This document shows positions 2,092-28,318 of a DNA stretch of 28,318 nt, one piece after another. Position numbers and translations under genes: made by a program. Origin of the DNA: a virus; the IMG/VR virus record IMGVR_UViG_3300032046_000167, positions 1 to 28,318 of that record. One strand, given 5' to 3'. The number at the start of each line of letters is the position of its first letter. The first letter of the stretch is position 1. Under the pieces are notes generated by a model. That model made no database searches. It was not told the origin of the DNA and saw only the letters and a list, made by a program, of their open reading frames with translations.

Positions 2092-3318
2092 GTGAAAATC
2101 AAGAAAATTCCAATAGAAAAAATAAATCCAAGCATCTATAATCCTCGGCTGGATATTAAGCCCGGAGATCATGAATATGAAAGTCTTAAACGGTCAATAA
2201 CCGAATTTGGATTTGTTGACCCGTTAGTTTGGAACGAGCATAATGGGAATCTGATAGGGGGTCACCAGCGCTATAAAATTTTGCTGGAATTAGGTTATAA
2301 AGAAATTGATGTGTCAGTAGTCAATATCAAAGACCCTAAAATGGAAATGGCTTTAAATGTGTCGTTAAACAAAAATTTAGGGGATTGGGATTATGCCAAA
2401 CTCAAGGAATTGCTTGTCAACCTTGACGATGGGGCTTTTGATTTGACTTTAACGGGATTTGATGAGGCGGAATTAAAAAAGTTAATTGACTGGGATGGCG
2501 GACAAGGTTTGACAAATGAGGATGACGTGCCCGAATTACCCAAAAAAGCCAAATCTAAAATGGGGGAAATATATCAATTGAGCAATCATAGGCTTATGTG
2601 CGGGGATGCCGCCATAAAAGATGATGTTAAGCGGCTGATGAACGGGGAAAAGGCTGATATGGTTTTCACTGACCCGCCGTATGGGGTTGATTATGGCAAG
2701 AAGAATCGTCTTTTGAATTCCTTCCAGAAGGCAGGAAGGAATCTAAAAGATATTGCAAACGATACGCTTGGTAAGGATGAACTGTTTGATTTCTTAGTTA
2801 AGGCTTTTACACTTGCTTTTGATTTTGGTAAAGATTATTGTAGTTATTATATAACTGCTCCGCAGGGCGGCGAGTTAGGATTGACGATGATGATGATGAT
2901 GATGAGTGGATTGCCGGTTCGCCATGTTTTAATCTGGAATAAAAACCGACAAAATTTCTCACTTGGTAGATTAGATTATGAATACAAACACGAACCCATA
3001 TTGTTTACATGGAAAAAAACACATAAATTTTATGGCAAGGGAACTCATAAAAATAGTGTCTGGGATATTGATAAAGAATTAAAATGCGATATTCGTCCTA
3101 CAATGAAACCAGTTGAACTTATAGAAAATGCTGTTTTAAATTCAAGCAAAAAAGATGATGTTGTTGCGGATTTTTTCTTGGGTTCGGGTTCTACAATAAT
3201 AGCTTGTGAAAAGACCAATCGCAGATGTTATGGTTTAGAAATTGAGCCAATCTATGTTGATGTTGCTGTTAAAAGATGGGAAGATTTTACAGGGAAAAAG
3301 GCAGTAAAAATCAAATAA
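2092..3318 (+). CDS. ParB-domain DNA methyltransferase (beta class, N6-adenine/N4-cytosine)
   Basis: 408 residues with a GTG start after AAGGGGGG. Residues 1-100 are a ParB/Srx-like domain with the GGHQR motif (56-60). The rest is an amino-methyltransferase: motif IV DPPY at 194-197 and the AdoMet motif FLGSGS at 362-367, near the C-terminus. Motif IV before motif I is the beta-class order. The product would methylate adenine N6 or cytosine N4, probably to protect phage DNA or mark replication. Residues 266-271 are six consecutive Met from an (ATG)6 run. No restriction endonuclease is adjacent, so this is an orphan enzyme. Confidence 0.9.
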   Translation: MKIKKIPIEKINPSIYNPRLDIKPGDHEYESLKRSITEFGFVDPLVWNEHNGNLIGGHQRYKILLELGYKEIDVSVVNIKDPKMEMALNVSLNKNLGDWDYAKLKELLVNLDDGAFDLTLTGFDEAELKKLIDWDGGQGLTNEDDVPELPKKAKSKMGEIYQLSNHRLMCGDAAIKDDVKRLMNGEKADMVFTDPPYGVDYGKKNRLLNSFQKAGRNLKDIANDTLGKDELFDFLVKAFTLAFDFGKDYCSYYITAPQGGELGLTMMMMMMSGLPVRHVLIWNKNRQNFSLGRLDYEYKHEPILFTWKKTHKFYGKGTHKNSVWDIDKELKCDIRPTMKPVELIENAVLNSSKKDDVVADFFLGSGSTIIACEKTNRRCYGLEIEPIYVDVAVKRWEDFTGKKAVKIK

Positions 3319-24407: not shown

Positions 24408-24436
24408 TTGACAAAAACCATAGCTTCTGCTATACT
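24408..24436 (+). promoter_or_regulatory. Near-consensus sigma70 promoter for the accessory/recombination block
   Basis: TTGACA (24408-24413), 17-base spacer, TATACT (24431-24436): five of six at -10 and perfect at -35. The expected start point is about 24443, the A of an ATG. It would transcribe the Cys-rich protein and the first AEG-repeat gene. Confidence 0.8.
24420..24433. promoter_or_regulatory. Operator-like dyad inside the promoter
   Basis: ATAGC (24420-24424), four bases, GCTAT (24429-24433) is a perfect inverted repeat lying in the spacer and overlapping the -10 box. A dimeric repressor bound here would block polymerase. No second copy was found near the other two promoters. Confidence 0.4.
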
Positions 24437-24562: not shown

Positions 24563-24757
24563 ATGAGTGAGAAAAAAAAGAAATGCAAAAACTGTGTCAG
24601 TTACAGGAGGACCTCTGATACCGACGGAGGCTACTGCAGGGCATACGACGAGGATGTCAACGAGTCCTCTTGTAAGTCCTGCTGGTCTCCATATGCATAT
24701 AAGACCAGCAAGGGAGACGGCGAGAATACGAAAAAAACAGGAGGAAAAATAAAATGA
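24563..24757 (+). CDS. Small five-Cys protein, probable zinc-binding
   Basis: 64 residues from ATG 24563, with AGGAGG at ideal spacing. C8-x2-C11, C25 and C37-x2-C40 form a CxxC...C...CxxC pattern with aromatic residues between, typical of small zinc or iron-sulfur modules. N- and C-termini are Lys-rich. An upstream in-frame ATG at 24443 would add 40 residues. It is the first gene of its transcript and ends ATGA on the repeat gene. Not recognised as a named family. Confidence 0.65.
   Translation: MSEKKKKCKNCVSYRRTSDTDGGYCRAYDEDVNESSCKSCWSPYAYKTSKGDGENTKKTGGKIK
24739..24757 (+). repeat. 19-bp ribosome-site direct repeat, copy 1
   Basis: AGGAGGAAAAATAAAATGA covers the ribosome site and start codon of the first AEG-repeat gene. 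Identical copies stand at 25172 and 28085. Confidence 0.85.
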
Positions 24758-25185
24758 CAACGAAACCATTAAGTCTGCTGTTTATCTGGAAGATGTATCT
24801 AAGGCTCCATGCCGAGGGCAACAAGCTCTGTGCCGAGAGTGGCAAGCTCTGCGCCGAGGGCAACAAGCTCTACGCCGAGGGTGGCAAGCTCTACGCCGAG
24901 GGCAACAGGCTCTACGCCGAGGGCAACAAGCTCTACGCCGAGGGTGGCAAGCTCTACGCCGAGGGCAACAGGCTCTACGCCGAGGGCGACAAGCTCCATG
25001 CCGAGGGCAACAGGCTCCGTGCCGAGAGTGGCAAACTCTACGCCGAGGGCAACAGGCTCCGTGCCGAGGGTCAAATCCTGTGGGCAAACGCTATCATTGA
25101 GGTTCATGGGAATATAAAGTTGGAGTGGAAAGCGTGGAATTATTGCGTGTTGGAGACGGGCGAGGAATTCAAGGAGGAAAAATAA
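24754..25185 (+). CDS. AEG heptapeptide-repeat protein, copy 1
   Basis: 143 residues. A 17-residue N-terminus (MTTKPLSLLFIWKMYLR) is followed by twelve complete 7-residue units, consensus L-Y-A-E-G-N-K, and a thirteenth that runs into a unique C-terminal 35 residues containing several Trp. Leu and Ala recur at fixed heptad places, so a helical or solenoid stack is plausible, though Gly in every unit argues against a simple coiled coil. Position 2 varies (Tyr, His, Cys, Arg); 6 and 7 vary among N/G/D and K/R. DNA of the units is GC-rich (13 of 21 in the consensus). I recall similar AEG-repeat proteins in phages, without a known function. A second copy begins at 28100. Confidence 0.75.
   Translation: MTTKPLSLLFIWKMYLRLHAEGNKLCAESGKLCAEGNKLYAEGGKLYAEGNRLYAEGNKLYAEGGKLYAEGNRLYAEGDKLHAEGNRLRAESGKLYAEGNRLRAEGQILWANAIIEVHGNIKLEWKAWNYCVLETGEEFKEEK
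24805..25077 (+). repeat. Tandem 21-bp repeat array, 13 units
   Basis: Units of the form CTCTACGCCGAGGGCAACAAG, in frame with the coding sequence, twelve complete and one diverging at its end. Differences cluster at codons 2, 5, 6 and 7; synonymous drift is nearly absent, so the array expanded recently or is kept uniform by recombination. Confidence 0.95.
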
Positions 25186-25190
25186 AATGA
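25172..25190 (+). repeat. 19-bp ribosome-site direct repeat, copy 2
   Basis: Same 19 bases as at 24739, here serving the next gene (25187). Copies 1 and 2 bracket the AEG-repeat gene exactly. Confidence 0.85.
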
Positions 25191-25396
25191 AACTAACAAA
25201 AAAGTTCATTAAAAAAGTGAAGGCCCATGACGCTTGGGCCTGGCACGATGCCGAGTGGCATCGGTTTGAGAATTTCCCCGAAGTTGAGGCTGTCCAGGTA
25301 GCTCTAACTTGTTCGGAATGGGGAGATAATTTTTGCGATATAAAAAAATTTGCGGAAGAATATCTAGCCGCACACAAAGAGCAAGTAAACGCCTAG
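25187..25396 (+). CDS. Small acidic/aromatic hypothetical protein
   Basis: 69 residues, not recognised. AAGGAGG precedes the ATG. Basic N-terminus (KLTKKFIKKVKAHDAW), then Trp/His-rich centre (WAWHDAEWHRFENFP), then 'VQVALTCSEWGDNFCDIKKFAEEYLAAHKEQ' helix. No membrane segment. It follows the AEG gene by one base, and a GC hairpin follows it, so it probably ends this transcript. Confidence 0.6.
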   Translation: MKLTKKFIKKVKAHDAWAWHDAEWHRFENFPEVEAVQVALTCSEWGDNFCDIKKFAEEYLAAHKEQVNA

Positions 25397-25408
25397 CCTT
25401 GAGCCTGT

Positions 25409-25458
25409 CCCTCCCCCAAAGGCTGGGGAGGGGCGGGCATGAGGGCTTGTGCTTTTTT
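25409..25458 (+). terminator. GC-rich hairpin, probable terminator
   Basis: CCCTCCCC (25409-25416) and GGGGAGGG (25425-25432) form a perfect eight-bp stem with an eight-base loop. The nearest T-run (TTTTTT, 25453-25458) is 20 bases on, so intrinsic termination would be inefficient or use another fold. It separates the gene at 25187 from the promoter at 25496. Confidence 0.5.
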
Positions 25459-25495
25459 GGTTTGGCTGTAAATTATTACGGACATAAACAAACAC

Positions 25496-25525
25496 TTGAC
25501 AAAATTAAAACAAAAAATATATAAT
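25496..25525 (+). promoter_or_regulatory. Consensus promoter of the recombination operon
   Basis: TTGACA (25496-25501), 18-base spacer, TATAAT (25520-25525): both boxes match consensus perfectly. Expected start is about 25532, so the RNA would begin with the ribosome site GGAGGTGG and have a leader of about 11 bases. It lies in the gap between hairpin and HTH gene. Confidence 0.85.
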
Positions 25526-25542
25526 CGCTACGGAGGTGGATT

Positions 25543-25710
25543 ATGTATTTGACCATGAAGGAAGTAGCAGAAAAAATCGGGTGCAGTTGGCAGGTTATTC
25601 AATATCATGTTAAACAGAAAAATATACCAAGCATGAAAATGAATAACGGCAGGGTCTTTATCAAAGAAAAATTGTTGTCTGCCATAAGGGAAATAATAAA
25701 AGAAAAGTAA
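25543..25710 (+). CDS. Small helix-turn-helix DNA-binding protein
   Basis: 55 residues. 'YLTMKEVAEKIGCSWQVIQYHVKQKNIPSMKMNNGRVFIKEKLL' is a MerR/excisionase-type (HTH_17) winged helix: the recognition helix follows the turn GCS and the wing holds the R-x-F-I strand. It could regulate the operon it heads or act as an excisionase. GGAGGTGG lies just before ATG 25543 and the promoter is immediately upstream. A ribosome site (AAGGAGG) for the next gene follows the stop. Confidence 0.75.
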   Translation: MYLTMKEVAEKIGCSWQVIQYHVKQKNIPSMKMNNGRVFIKEKLLSAIREIIKEK

Positions 25711-25722
25711 GGAGGAAATAAA

Positions 25723-26595
25723 ATGGAAACAAAACTGGAGAAAGCAAAAGATAAAAAAGATATTGCGGTTCCGGGCATTACCAGAGACCAGTTGGAACTT
25801 TGGAAAAGAATGTATTGCCCGGATGCGACCGACGACGAGATGAAAGTGTTTGCTCATGTGGCAAAAAAGACGGGGCTTGACCCGACAGTGAGGCAGCTCT
25901 ATTTTGTTAAACGCCAAACCAAACGCGGGCCAGTGGCCACAATCCAAACGGGGATTGACGGCCTACGGGTTGTTGCCCATCGCTCAGGAGAGTATTGCGG
26001 ATCAGACGAGCCTATATTTGATATAGGCGAGGATGGGAAACCTAAAAAGGCCACTGTAACCGTGTGGCGGATGGTGGACAAGATAAGATGCCCTTTTGTG
26101 GCTTCTGCAAGATGGGGAGAGTATTTTCCCGGGCAAACTGAAAATCAGTTTATGTGGAATAAAATGCCTTTTGGTCAGTTGGGGAAGTGTGCCGAGGCAC
26201 TGGCACTGAGAAAAGGCTTCCCATTAGAATGCGCGGGAGTTTATATTCAGGAAGAAATGGCACAGGCAGAAAATGGTGACACAATTGCAATGCCAAAATC
26301 TATAACCACATCTTCTGAAATTCCAAAAACAGAAATAAAAGAAGCCAAAAAAGAATCCGACTTTCACATCACGAAAGTCAAGGCGGTTAAGCGGGTACAA
26401 AAAGATAAAAAAGAAATATATAGAATTATTACCGAGATGGGAGATTGTTGGACTGATAATCTTAAGATAGCAACCATCGCAAATGGGGCGCAGAGAGATG
26501 GGGAATTGATAAGATTATCAGTTGTAGCCGAGAAAAATGGAGTCATTAAAATACTGTCACTGGAGGCAGTAAAAAATGAACCGGGAAAATCTTAA
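25723..26595 (+). CDS. bet: Bet/RecT-family single-strand annealing protein with C-terminal extension
   Basis: 290 residues. The core (about 20-180) matches the Bet pattern: 'GLDPTVRQLYFVKRQTKRGPVATIQTGIDGLRVVAHRSGEYCGSDEP' and 'MWNKMPFGQLGKCAEALALRKGFP'. Such proteins anneal complementary single strands in phage recombination, together with an exonuclease and SSB. After a linker, residues 212-290 form a separate beta-rich segment ('DFHITKVKAVKRVQKDKKEIYRIITEMGD...LIRLSVVAEKNGVIKILSLEAV') that looks like an OB-fold domain. AAGGAGG precedes the ATG. The exonuclease gene overlaps the 3' end. Confidence 0.88.
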   Translation: METKLEKAKDKKDIAVPGITRDQLELWKRMYCPDATDDEMKVFAHVAKKTGLDPTVRQLYFVKRQTKRGPVATIQTGIDGLRVVAHRSGEYCGSDEPIFDIGEDGKPKKATVTVWRMVDKIRCPFVASARWGEYFPGQTENQFMWNKMPFGQLGKCAEALALRKGFPLECAGVYIQEEMAQAENGDTIAMPKSITTSSEIPKTEIKEAKKESDFHITKVKAVKRVQKDKKEIYRIITEMGDCWTDNLKIATIANGAQRDGELIRLSVVAEKNGVIKILSLEAVKNEPGKS

Positions 26596-27187
26596 ATTCC
26601 TGCCAGAAACTCATCAATATTTTGTAGGCGATAAAGAACTACCTAGCGTAACTGCCATCCTAAGAGGGTGCGGCATAATTCCCAATAATCAATATTACAA
26701 CAATGATTTCTCAAGGAATGTAGGGCAGGTTGTTCATGTGGCTTGCGACCTGCTCAACAGGAAAAATCTTGATTGGTCTAGTTTGATTCCAGAGGTCGCT
26801 GGATATGTGAGAAGTTATGAAAGATGGACACATATTATAGGGTTTGAGATGATTGCTTCTGAGATGGCGATGTATTCTCAAGAATGGCGGTTTGCGGGGA
26901 AACTAGATGTAGTAGGATGGGTAAAGGGGAAACGATTATTGCTGGATTTAAAAACTGGTGTTGTTTTGCCGGGGACAGCAATACAAACGGCAGGATATGA
27001 AATCTTGTGGCAAGAAAATCAAAAAGTCTCTATACAGGAAAGGGGCTCATTGAAATTATTTCCTGATGGAAGCTTGCCAAAACTGACAATATTTCCAAAT
27101 CCTGACGACATAGAAATATTTAAGGCGTGCAGAAAAATCTATAACTGGAGGTATCAAGATGACTCAGATAGTGATAGAAAAACCTGA
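26576..27187 (+). CDS. PD-(D/E)XK exonuclease (Cas4/RecB-like)
   Basis: 203 residues. 'WRFAGKLDVVGWVKGKRLLLDLKTG' gives the nuclease site: D111, then D124-x-K126, with T127-G128 and downstream Q137/Y141 (Q-x2-G-Y). This is the fold of RecB/Cas4 and phage exonucleases. Next to Bet it would resect ends to make the strands that Bet anneals. N-terminal 'LPSVTAILRGCG' with 'VGQVVHVACDLL' resembles the helical start of such nucleases. The start overlaps bet by 20 bases, with GGAGG ahead; the coupled neighbour overlaps its 3' end by 29. Confidence 0.85.
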   Translation: MNRENLKFLPETHQYFVGDKELPSVTAILRGCGIIPNNQYYNNDFSRNVGQVVHVACDLLNRKNLDWSSLIPEVAGYVRSYERWTHIIGFEMIASEMAMYSQEWRFAGKLDVVGWVKGKRLLLDLKTGVVLPGTAIQTAGYEILWQENQKVSIQERGSLKLFPDGSLPKLTIFPNPDDIEIFKACRKIYNWRYQDDSDSDRKT

Positions 27188-27902
27188 TACGACGGAAATG
27201 CAGACGGCGGCCAGTAGTATTACGGGATTGGCTAATGCATTGACTGTAAAAGATGATGGCGAACTGATAATCGCTGTAAATCTTACAAAGGAAATTAAAA
27301 ACAGAATTGATATGGTGCAGAATAAATTTAAGGAACCAGTCAAATTGGCTTATGACGCCCATAAATCAATCGTGGCCTTACGAGATTCTGTGCTTACTCC
27401 ACTGAAAAATGCCGAGATTTGCATCAAAGCAAAGATGGGAATATATCAGATGGAACAAGAACAAATCAGGCAGGAATCCGAAAGAAAAGCACAGGAGGAA
27501 AAGGAAAGGGCAGAAGCAGAGGCAAGACGTAAGCACAACGAGGAACTGGCTAAAGCGCAGAAGGAAGCCGAAGAAAGGGCGCTTGCAGAGGCCGCCGAAG
27601 CTGAGGCCAAAGGGGATAAAGAACGTGCGGAGAAGATACTAACCGAACCACTAGAGACCGATTTCGTGCCGCCGCCAGCATCAGTTGAAACGCCGCCATC
27701 TATGCCTGAACCAGTCAAAATTAATGGGGCGAGTTTTGGAAAAGTGGTTAGATGGCGGATAACTCATGAGGATTCTGTGCCGAGATTTTTATGTAGTTCG
27801 GACTCCCAGAAAATCAATGCTTATACCCGCACGATGGGAATGAAAGCAAAAGTTGACGGCGTGAAATTTTGGGAAGAAATAAAACCACGAATAATAAAAT
27901 AA
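27159..27902 (+). CDS. Coiled-coil recombination-associated protein
   Basis: 247 residues. A helical N-terminus (about 20-95), a long Glu/Lys/Ala-rich coiled coil (about 97-160), a Pro-rich linker (170-186) and a C-terminal domain with 'KVVRWRITHEDSVPRF' and 'YTRTMGMKAKVDGVKFWEE'. Proteins with this layout, ending in a W-x-I..D..ipxx... and G-V-x-F/Y motif, are frequent beside Bet/RecT genes; their role is unknown. GGAGG precedes ATG 27159. The gene overlaps the exonuclease by 29 bases. Confidence 0.72.
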   Translation: MTQIVIEKPDTTEMQTAASSITGLANALTVKDDGELIIAVNLTKEIKNRIDMVQNKFKEPVKLAYDAHKSIVALRDSVLTPLKNAEICIKAKMGIYQMEQEQIRQESERKAQEEKERAEAEARRKHNEELAKAQKEAEERALAEAAEAEAKGDKERAEKILTEPLETDFVPPPASVETPPSMPEPVKINGASFGKVVRWRITHEDSVPRFLCSSDSQKINAYTRTMGMKAKVDGVKFWEEIKPRIIK

Positions 27903-27912
27903 AGGAGGGAAA

Positions 27913-28083
27913 ATGAAAAAGAAAAAAACGGCTTTAGACGTGGCAATCAGATGGATGGCATCTGACAATAACTGTCGGCTTTGTCTTATTCCCCTATCAA
28001 GTGAATTTTGTAATGGAAGAACAAAAGATTGCGAGAAATGGATAAGGAAATATCTAATAATGAAAGCAAGGGAGGTAAAATAA
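27913..28083 (+). CDS. Small four-Cys protein, possible zinc finger
   Basis: 56 residues beginning with five basic residues. C21-x2-C24 and C33-x6-C40 make a likely four-Cys site; Trp14 and Trp43 flank it. AAAGGAGGG is well placed before ATG 27913. It ends at 28083, two bases before the ribosome-site repeat of the second AEG gene. Like the Cys protein at 24563 it stands just before an AEG-repeat gene, although the two do not look alike in sequence. Confidence 0.65.
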   Translation: MKKKKTALDVAIRWMASDNNCRLCLIPLSSEFCNGRTKDCEKWIRKYLIMKAREVK

Positions 28084-28084
28084 A

Positions 28085-28103
28085 AGGAGGAAAAATAAAA
28101 TGA
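28085..28103 (+). repeat. 19-bp ribosome-site direct repeat, copy 3
   Basis: Same 19 bases as at 24739 and 25172, covering the ribosome site and start of the second AEG-repeat gene. Confidence 0.85.
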
Positions 28104-28318
28104 CAACGAAACCATTAAGTCTGCTGTTTATCTGGAAGATGTATCTAAGGCTCCATGCCGAGGGCAACAAGCTCTGCGCCGAGAGTGGCAAGCTCTACGC
28201 CGAGGGCAACAAGCTCTACGCCGAGGGTGGCAAGCTCTACGCCGAGGGCAACAGGCTCTACGCCGAGGGCGACAAGCTCCATGCCGAGGGCAACAGGCTC
28301 CGTGCCGAGAGTGGCAAA
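28100..28318 (+). CDS. AEG heptapeptide-repeat protein, copy 2 (3' partial)
   Basis: 73 codons are visible and the frame runs off the right edge after exactly eight units. The first 17 residues are identical to copy 1. Compared with copy 1, units 3-5 are missing and units 3-8 here equal units 6-11 there base for base; the only other change is a silent TGT/TGC in unit 2. It is therefore a very recent duplicate. The C-terminus lies outside the window, so whether it is a full gene is unknown. Confidence 0.72.
   Translation, partial: MTTKPLSLLFIWKMYLRLHAEGNKLCAESGKLYAEGNKLYAEGGKLYAEGNRLYAEGDKLHAEGNRLRAESGK
28151..28318 (+). repeat. Tandem 21-bp repeat array, copy 2 (8 units visible)
   Basis: Eight in-frame 21-bp units up to the window edge, sharing unit order with the first array except for the three-unit gap. 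Confidence 0.93.

What the first reader, a model, noticed from the sequence alone, without database searches (positions are those of the whole stretch)
24739..28318. Duplicated AEG-heptapeptide genes differing by exactly three repeat units
The genes at 24754 and 28100 are identical from 24739/28085 for 92 bases; then one silent TGT/TGC change, a 63-bp (three-unit) gap, and 126 further identical bases. The array is GC-rich in an AT-rich genome, and variation falls at codons 2, 5, 6 and 7 of the unit. Length change by unequal crossing-over during or after duplication explains this. The two copies bracket the HTH-bet-exonuclease block, so recombination between them would loop out about 3.3 kb carrying the annealing and nuclease genes. 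The protein's function is unknown to me.
Basis: partly seen in the sequence, partly recalled or inferred. Interest (0 to 1): 0.75.

Follow-up and report, generated by a model that had tools for sequence, protein, structure and literature searches.

The report
Phage repeat genes with hypervariable residues
This virus of bacteria carries two near-copies of a gene whose protein is a string of seven-residue repeats; in the same protein family elsewhere, two residues per repeat vary much faster than chance while the rest stays fixed, which suggests a rapidly re-tailored binding surface, though no binding partner is known.

Summary
The sequence observation holds: two gene copies share identical starts and 21-bp units and differ by one silent base and a 63-bp (three-unit) gap. 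"Exactly three units" applies only to the visible part, because the contig ends inside copy 2. The copies belong to an undescribed phage family, found on about 45 environmental contigs or records and named in no library searched: a constant N-cap, 0 to 21 heptads LxAEGxK, and a constant C-cap. AlphaFold2 predicts a long helical hairpin plus a small beta cap. Over 33 genomes, units inside an array are nearly identical at silent sites (0.07), but codons 2 and 6 differ at about 0.38 per base (p 1e-6 or lower); pN/pS is 2.5 there and 0.29 elsewhere. Paralogues in one genome keep near-identical caps while unit number (for example 16, 15, 9, 7, 5) and the variable residues change. This is concerted evolution plus diversifying selection, as in fungal HNWD recognition receptors. 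I infer an early-expressed protein with an exchangeable binding face, target unknown. A special link to the RecT block is not supported: RecT is present in 3 of 30 family contigs. The deletion hypothesis is possible but untested.

The parts
24739..24753 (+). Ribosome-binding-site leader identical to 28085-28099
24754..25185 (+). Copy 1, complete gene, 143 aa: N-cap, 13 LxAEGxK units, C-cap
   Evidence: relatives
24754..24804 (+). N-cap of copy 1 (MTTKPLSLLFIWKMYLR; family motif W..R.KL, here with Y at the R position)
   Evidence: alignment A1
24805..25077 (+). Heptapeptide array of copy 1, 13 units of 21 bp; positions 2 and 6 of each unit hypervariable in the family
24847..24909 (+). The three units (63 bp) missing from copy 2; near-copy of units 6-8
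25078..25182 (+). C-cap of copy 1 (LWANAIIEVHGNIKLEWKAWNYCVLETGEEFKEEK), predicted helix end plus small beta sheet
28085..28099 (+). Ribosome-binding-site leader of copy 2
28100..28318 (+). Copy 2, cut by the contig end: N-cap (28100-28150) and 8 units (28151-28318)
24408..24436 (+). Promoter-like TTGACA-17-TATACT upstream of copy 1
   Evidence: consensus match only
25496..25525 (+). Promoter-like TTGACA-18-TATAAT upstream of the block between the copies; copy 2 is the last gene seen downstream
   Evidence: consensus match only
25543..25710 (+). HTH_17/MerR-like small DNA-binding protein (context)
25723..26595 (+). RecT-family annealing protein (context)
   Evidence: PF03837 E=4.1e-21
26576..27187 (+). 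PD-(D/E)XK-type phage exonuclease (context)
   Evidence: phrog_298 E=5.9e-17

Best explanation
The two genes are members of a phage family of variable helical repeat proteins. Shown by sequence: constant N- and C-caps flank a heptad array (L-x-A-E-G-x-K) whose unit number and residues 2 and 6 turn over much faster than the caps. Units are homogenised within a genome, presumably by unequal crossing-over, slippage or conversion between repeats and between gene copies, while residues 2 and 6 are held diverse by selection. Predicted: the array folds as an antiparallel helical hairpin whose length scales with unit number, with the caps at its base. Inferred: residues 2 and 6 are i/i+4 on one side of the helix, and in an antiparallel hairpin the stripes of both arms come to lie on the same side. 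This makes a two-helix-wide variable face rich in R, W, Y, H, C and D, N, S, G, A, typical of interaction surfaces. The most likely role is an early-expressed protein that binds a changing partner (host or competing-phage protein, or nucleic acid), with recombination between copies producing new variants. Duplication with a three-unit change is the window's example of that turnover.
For: Family and anatomy. Only codons 2 and 6 vary: register-fixed per-base diversity inside arrays is 0.48/0.31/0.29 (codon 2) and 0.44/0.40/0.05 (codon 6) against 0.01-0.18 elsewhere; over 33 genomes codon 6 bases 1-2 against its own third base p=7e-6, against fourfold third bases p=6e-9, codon 2 p=1e-6. pN/pS at codons 2+6 is 2.49 (bootstrap 1.79-4.35), at the other five 0.29 (0.19-0.42). 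Silent third bases differ 0.077 within an array, 0.117 between paralogues of one genome, 0.451 between genomes; codons 2/6 differ 0.40, 0.45, 0.52, which is concerted evolution with near-saturated diversity at two residues. Same-residue units use the same codon, and no reverse transcriptase was found in 29 contigs, which argues for selection rather than a mutator. Paralogues: G016 N-caps 38-42/42 and C-caps 82-90/90 identical with n=16, 15, 9, 7, 5; G027 caps 45/45 and 90/90 with n=14 against 9. An apparent zero-unit homologue keeps both caps. Models with pLDDT 92 and 90, two long helices with a mid-array break, then strands. Neighbours are replication, recombination and methylation genes.
Against: No partner, phenotype or homologue of known function; structure matches are insignificant (best PDB E 0.11). 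Repeats and coiled coils are a known weak point of structure prediction, and oligomeric state is unknown. No covariation between units that would face each other in a hairpin, beyond one of 21 tests that is borderline after correction. The selection test compares units within arrays, not a species tree; codon bias may lower pS. Arrays come from metagenome assemblies that break in repeats. No pair of close relatives with different unit numbers was available.
Confidence: 0.5

Rival explanations
1. The array is a helical spacer or ruler of tolerated variable length; positions 2 and 6 are simply unconstrained surface residues and repeat number drifts by slippage.
For: Unit number ranges from 0 to 21; positions 2 and 6 lie on one side of the predicted helix, away from the L/G stripe; no partner known.
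Against: Unconstrained sites should vary at the silent-site rate, but codons 2/6 vary about five times faster than fourfold sites in the same units. A spacer would not need paralogues that differ mainly in these residues.
Confidence: 0.22
2. The variable codons are produced by a targeted mutator, as in diversity-generating retroelements, rather than by selection.
For: Variation is confined to two codons of a conserved unit; transitions predominate; position 6 codons are mostly RRC/RRT, as in adenine-mutagenised AAY codons.
Against: No reverse transcriptase (PF00078) in 29 family contigs; codon 6 third base is quiet and silent differences at codons 2/6 are not raised; codon 2 varies T/C at its first base, not an adenine pattern.
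Confidence: 0.06
3. The variable residue pairs read a nucleic-acid sequence, one heptad per step, like TALE or PPR repeats.
For: Two variable residues per repeat including R, N, D, H, Y, W; genes lie among replication and recombination genes.
Against: Array net charge is near zero (-6 to +3); a straight hairpin does not wrap DNA; positions 2 and 6 vary independently of each other.
Confidence: 0.1
4. One reading: the copies are mainly direct repeats for loop-out of the 3.3-kb RecT-exonuclease block, a deletion switch.
For: Direct repeats with 92 and 127 nt of identity flank the block; the phage carries its own annealing protein.
Against: RecT occurs in 3 of 30 family contigs; elsewhere copies are tandem or flank other genes; no deleted form seen.
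Confidence: 0.07
5. Copy 2 is an assembly artefact: the contig was wrongly extended into a second reading of copy 1.
For: The contig ends inside copy 2; copies are identical over long stretches; assemblers break in these arrays elsewhere.
Against: Copy 2 differs by a silent base and a three-unit gap and has its own upstream sequence; fully assembled multi-copy sets exist in G001 and G016.
Confidence: 0.12

Closest known systems
HNWD (het-d/het-e/het-r) allorecognition genes of Podospora anserina (PMC1805685, PMC2873952)
   Same: Tandem repeats under concerted evolution within and between paralogues, variable repeat number, and a few codons per repeat under diversifying selection on an interaction surface (abstracts read)
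   Different: Those are WD40 repeats on fungal STAND proteins that control cell death on fusion; this is a small phage heptad protein with no effector domain and no known partner
Diversity-generating retroelement variable proteins of phages
   Same: Chosen residues diversified on a constant scaffold in phages
   Different: No reverse transcriptase in 29 contigs, tandem units instead of one variable region, no adenine pattern
TALE / PPR repeat-code proteins (recalled, not tested by alignment)
   Same: Two variable residues per otherwise fixed repeat
   Different: 33-35-residue superhelical repeats that wrap nucleic acid; here 7-residue helical units with near-neutral charge
Coiled-coil families such as FAZ1_C, TubC_N, HALZ (Pfam)
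   Same: Weak composition-driven hits to the array
   Different: For copy 1 all below curated cut-offs; over all members the hits are scattered over 34 unrelated families; none describes the caps or the family

Membership tests
AEG-heptad phage family (defined here) | N-cap with W..R.KL | tested here: met
   both copies have the N-cap with W at the conserved place; the R is replaced by Y in the window (R nearly invariant in alignment A1); copy 2 has the same N-cap
AEG-heptad phage family (defined here) | LxAEGxK array | tested here: met
   13 and at least 8 units
AEG-heptad phage family (defined here) | C-cap ..AII..yGNI.lEW....C.L..Ge.y | tested here: met
   copy 1; copy 2 is cut before it
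HNWD-like repeat diversification (principle only) | Concerted evolution of repeats within and between paralogues | tested here: met
   0.077 / 0.117 / 0.451
HNWD-like repeat diversification (principle only) | Few codons per repeat under diversifying selection | tested here: met
   (counting method, no codon model)
HNWD protein family (membership) | STAND NTPase with WD40 repeats | tested here: not met
   no such Pfam hit
Diversity-generating retroelement | Reverse transcriptase in the genome | tested here: not met
   0 of 29 contigs, (contigs may be incomplete)
Diversity-generating retroelement | Adenine-directed mutation | tested here: not met
   codon 2 base 1 varies T/C
TALE/PPR-type nucleic-acid readers | Sequence-specific nucleic-acid binding | not testable with these tools
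   needs binding assay

The most novel reading that the evidence does not exclude
Phages carry a modular recognition repertoire: helical-hairpin proteins whose binding face is rebuilt by adding, losing and swapping seven-residue units with two selected variable residues each, sometimes as several genes per genome, to track a changing partner.
Probability: 0.4. Interest if true: 0.88.

Novelty: new variant of a known kind. Interest (0 to 1): 0.68.

Why it matters
If right, phages have a reverse-transcriptase-free way to diversify an early protein, built on the same logic as fungal non-self recognition genes, in a very small scaffold. The hypervariable residues point to the interaction surface, so the partner can be sought directly, and the heptad could serve as a simple natural binding scaffold. 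It also warns that unit counts and copy numbers of these genes in short-read viral contigs are unreliable, since many contigs break inside the arrays.

Tried and rejected
Searched Pfam, PHROGs and NCBIfam for the protein: only composition-driven coiled-coil hits. PDB by sequence and Foldseek against PDB and BFVD: nothing significant. Plasmids for the C-cap: none. 84,980 bacterial and archaeal genomes by DNA pattern: four hits; two read as unrelated proteins (a Shewanella low-complexity stretch and a Patescibacteria coiled coil), and two gave no array in an open frame, so no prophage or host link. tblastn of copy 1 in phage records: weak matches, several annotated as tail fibre or tail spike; the one I read (MT835925) is an unrelated coiled coil. 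Diversity-generating retroelement tested and rejected. Hairpin-pair covariation tested, no robust signal. Selection for DNA heterogeneity (to stop repeats recombining) rejected, because silent sites are the least varied. DNA mimicry rejected by near-zero net charge. Close-relative comparison of unit number not possible: the only close pair is identical. Paper searches found no description of this repeat.
Full report
OBSERVATION. The two copies are as described where both can be read: 92 identical bases from 24739/28085, one silent T/C difference at 24831/28177, one 63-bp gap, then 127 identical bases to the end of the window. Copy 1 units 3-5 and 6-8 differ by a single base, so one gain (or loss) of a three-unit block explains the gap. 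The window is an entire linear IMG/VR contig of 28,318 bp and it stops inside copy 2 after eight units. The total unit number and the C-terminus of copy 2 are therefore unknown, and 'exactly three units' is a statement about the visible part only.

FAMILY. Copy 1 has relatives on environmental viral contigs. A DNA pattern for LxAEGxK-LxAEGxK-LxAEG found 38 stretches in 2.9 million IMG/VR contigs; a laxer pattern added only six, of which the one with a readable array is a partial ORF without the caps. The same strict pattern found four stretches in 84,980 prokaryote genomes, none shown to be a family member. A profile search over 40 contigs found a match in each. Full-length members share an N-cap with W..R.KL, an array of 4 to 21 units, and a C-cap of the type LWAEAIIEVYGNIKLEWKNW...CHLETGEVF. 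Members with decayed arrays but the same caps exist. Three phage records from Manatee Spring, identical over the compared 3.1 kb, hold an apparent zero-unit form in which N-cap and C-cap are joined directly. G034, a 121-kb contig, carries several decayed heptad genes with a different C-cap. No Pfam, PHROG, NCBIfam or PDB entry describes the family.

TWO RESIDUES PER UNIT ARE HYPERVARIABLE. In 420 units, L1 is 96% conserved, A3 98%, E4 97%, G5 93% and K7 90%, while position 2 is R, W, Y, C, H or Q and position 6 is D, N, S, A, G or H. Fixing the register so that odd units are not excluded, per-base differences between units of one array are 0.48/0.31/0.29 at codon 2 and 0.44/0.40/0.05 at codon 6; the third bases of codons 1, 3, 4 and 7 are at 0.04-0.07 and that of codon 5 at 0.18. 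With one array per genome (33 genomes), bases 1-2 of codon 6 exceed its third base (0.382 against 0.080, p=7e-6) and fourfold third bases (0.073, p=6e-9), and codon 2 exceeds them too (0.376, p=1e-6). pN/pS is 2.49 (bootstrap 1.79-4.35) at codons 2 and 6, and 0.29 (0.19-0.42) at the other five.

CONCERTED EVOLUTION. Silent third bases differ at 0.077 within an array, 0.117 between paralogous arrays of one genome and 0.451 between genomes. Codons 2 and 6 differ at 0.40, 0.45 and 0.52, so the variable residues of one array are nearly as diverse as those of different phages. Each array has its own founder codon set. This explains the GC-rich array in the window: GCC at 12 of 12 alanines against 16% in the other genes of the contig. 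In G016 five paralogues have near-identical caps (N-caps 38-42 of 42, C-caps 82-90 of 90 bases) but 16, 15, 9, 7 and 5 units with unrelated variable residues; G027 shows 14 against 9 units with identical caps; G001 has 21, 20 and 13. Gene duplication with array change is therefore recurrent, and the window shows one case.

SELECTION OR MUTATOR. Units that share a residue at position 2 or 6 nearly always share the codon, and the silent third base of codon 6 is quiet. The excess is thus confined to amino-acid-changing bases, which points to selection. No reverse transcriptase was found in 29 contigs and codon 2 varies at pyrimidines, so a diversity-generating retroelement is disfavoured. Selection merely to keep the DNA heterogeneous is also disfavoured, since silent sites would be the cheapest place for it.

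STRUCTURE. AlphaFold2 gives mean pLDDT 91.9 and pTM 0.74 for copy 1 (helices 8-59 and 61-118, then three strands) and 90.1 / 0.76 for the decayed-array member L051 (helices 5-53 and 59-108, two strands). The break lies near the middle in both, and Foldseek pairs both with long helical hairpins among other coiled-coil structures, without significance. On a 3.5-residue-per-turn helix, positions 1 and 5 (L, G) form one stripe, 2 and 6 the next, 3 and 7 the third (angles). Partner units do not covary convincingly. Net charge of arrays is near zero.

CONTEXT. Genes beside the arrays include primases, helicases, DNA methyltransferases, ParB-like proteins, resolvases and RecT, the early DNA-metabolism region. 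In the window both copies lie downstream of near-consensus sigma-70-like promoters (24408, 25496, consensus matches only). RecT occurs in only 3 of 30 contigs, so the bracketing of RecT is not a general feature.

INTERPRETATION. Shown: a phage family with constant caps, unstable arrays, concerted evolution and excess amino-acid change at two positions per unit. Predicted: helical hairpin. Inferred: a variable binding face for a changing partner. The closest working parallel is the HNWD gene family of Podospora, where repeats evolve in concert, repeat number varies and four residues per repeat on the interaction surface are under diversifying selection (PMC1805685, PMC2873952). It is not a member of that family: no WD40 or STAND domain. 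The partner is unknown and the binding role carries about even odds.

Noticed in passing
L106:3935-4117 (MW202524.1; also MW202718.1, MW202743.1): Unannotated apparent zero-unit homologue: N-cap joined directly to C-cap, in circular 42,585-bp podovirus records from Manatee Spring.
   Followed up: partly
L100, L101, L102 (G034, IMGVR_UViG_3300014884_000001): At least five small genes with decayed heptads and a different conserved C-cap (ELIRLFGFIP..), a second expansion of heptad genes in a 121-kb contig.
   Followed up: partly
L104 and L105 (G004, IMGVR_UViG_3300032516_000022): Both contig ends lie in one array on the same strand, consistent with a circular 61.8-kb genome broken inside the array by the assembler.
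   Followed up: partly
24563-24757 and 27913-28083: Each copy of the repeat gene is preceded by a small cysteine-containing protein gene (CxxC motifs) with no family match; whether the two are related was not tested.
   Followed up: no
2092-3318: From reading the translation, this ORF looks like a ParB-like domain fused to a DNA methyltransferase; not searched.
   Followed up: no
2882-2905: Run of TGA trinucleotides giving a poly-methionine stretch (GLTMMMMMMSG) inside that ORF.
   Followed up: no
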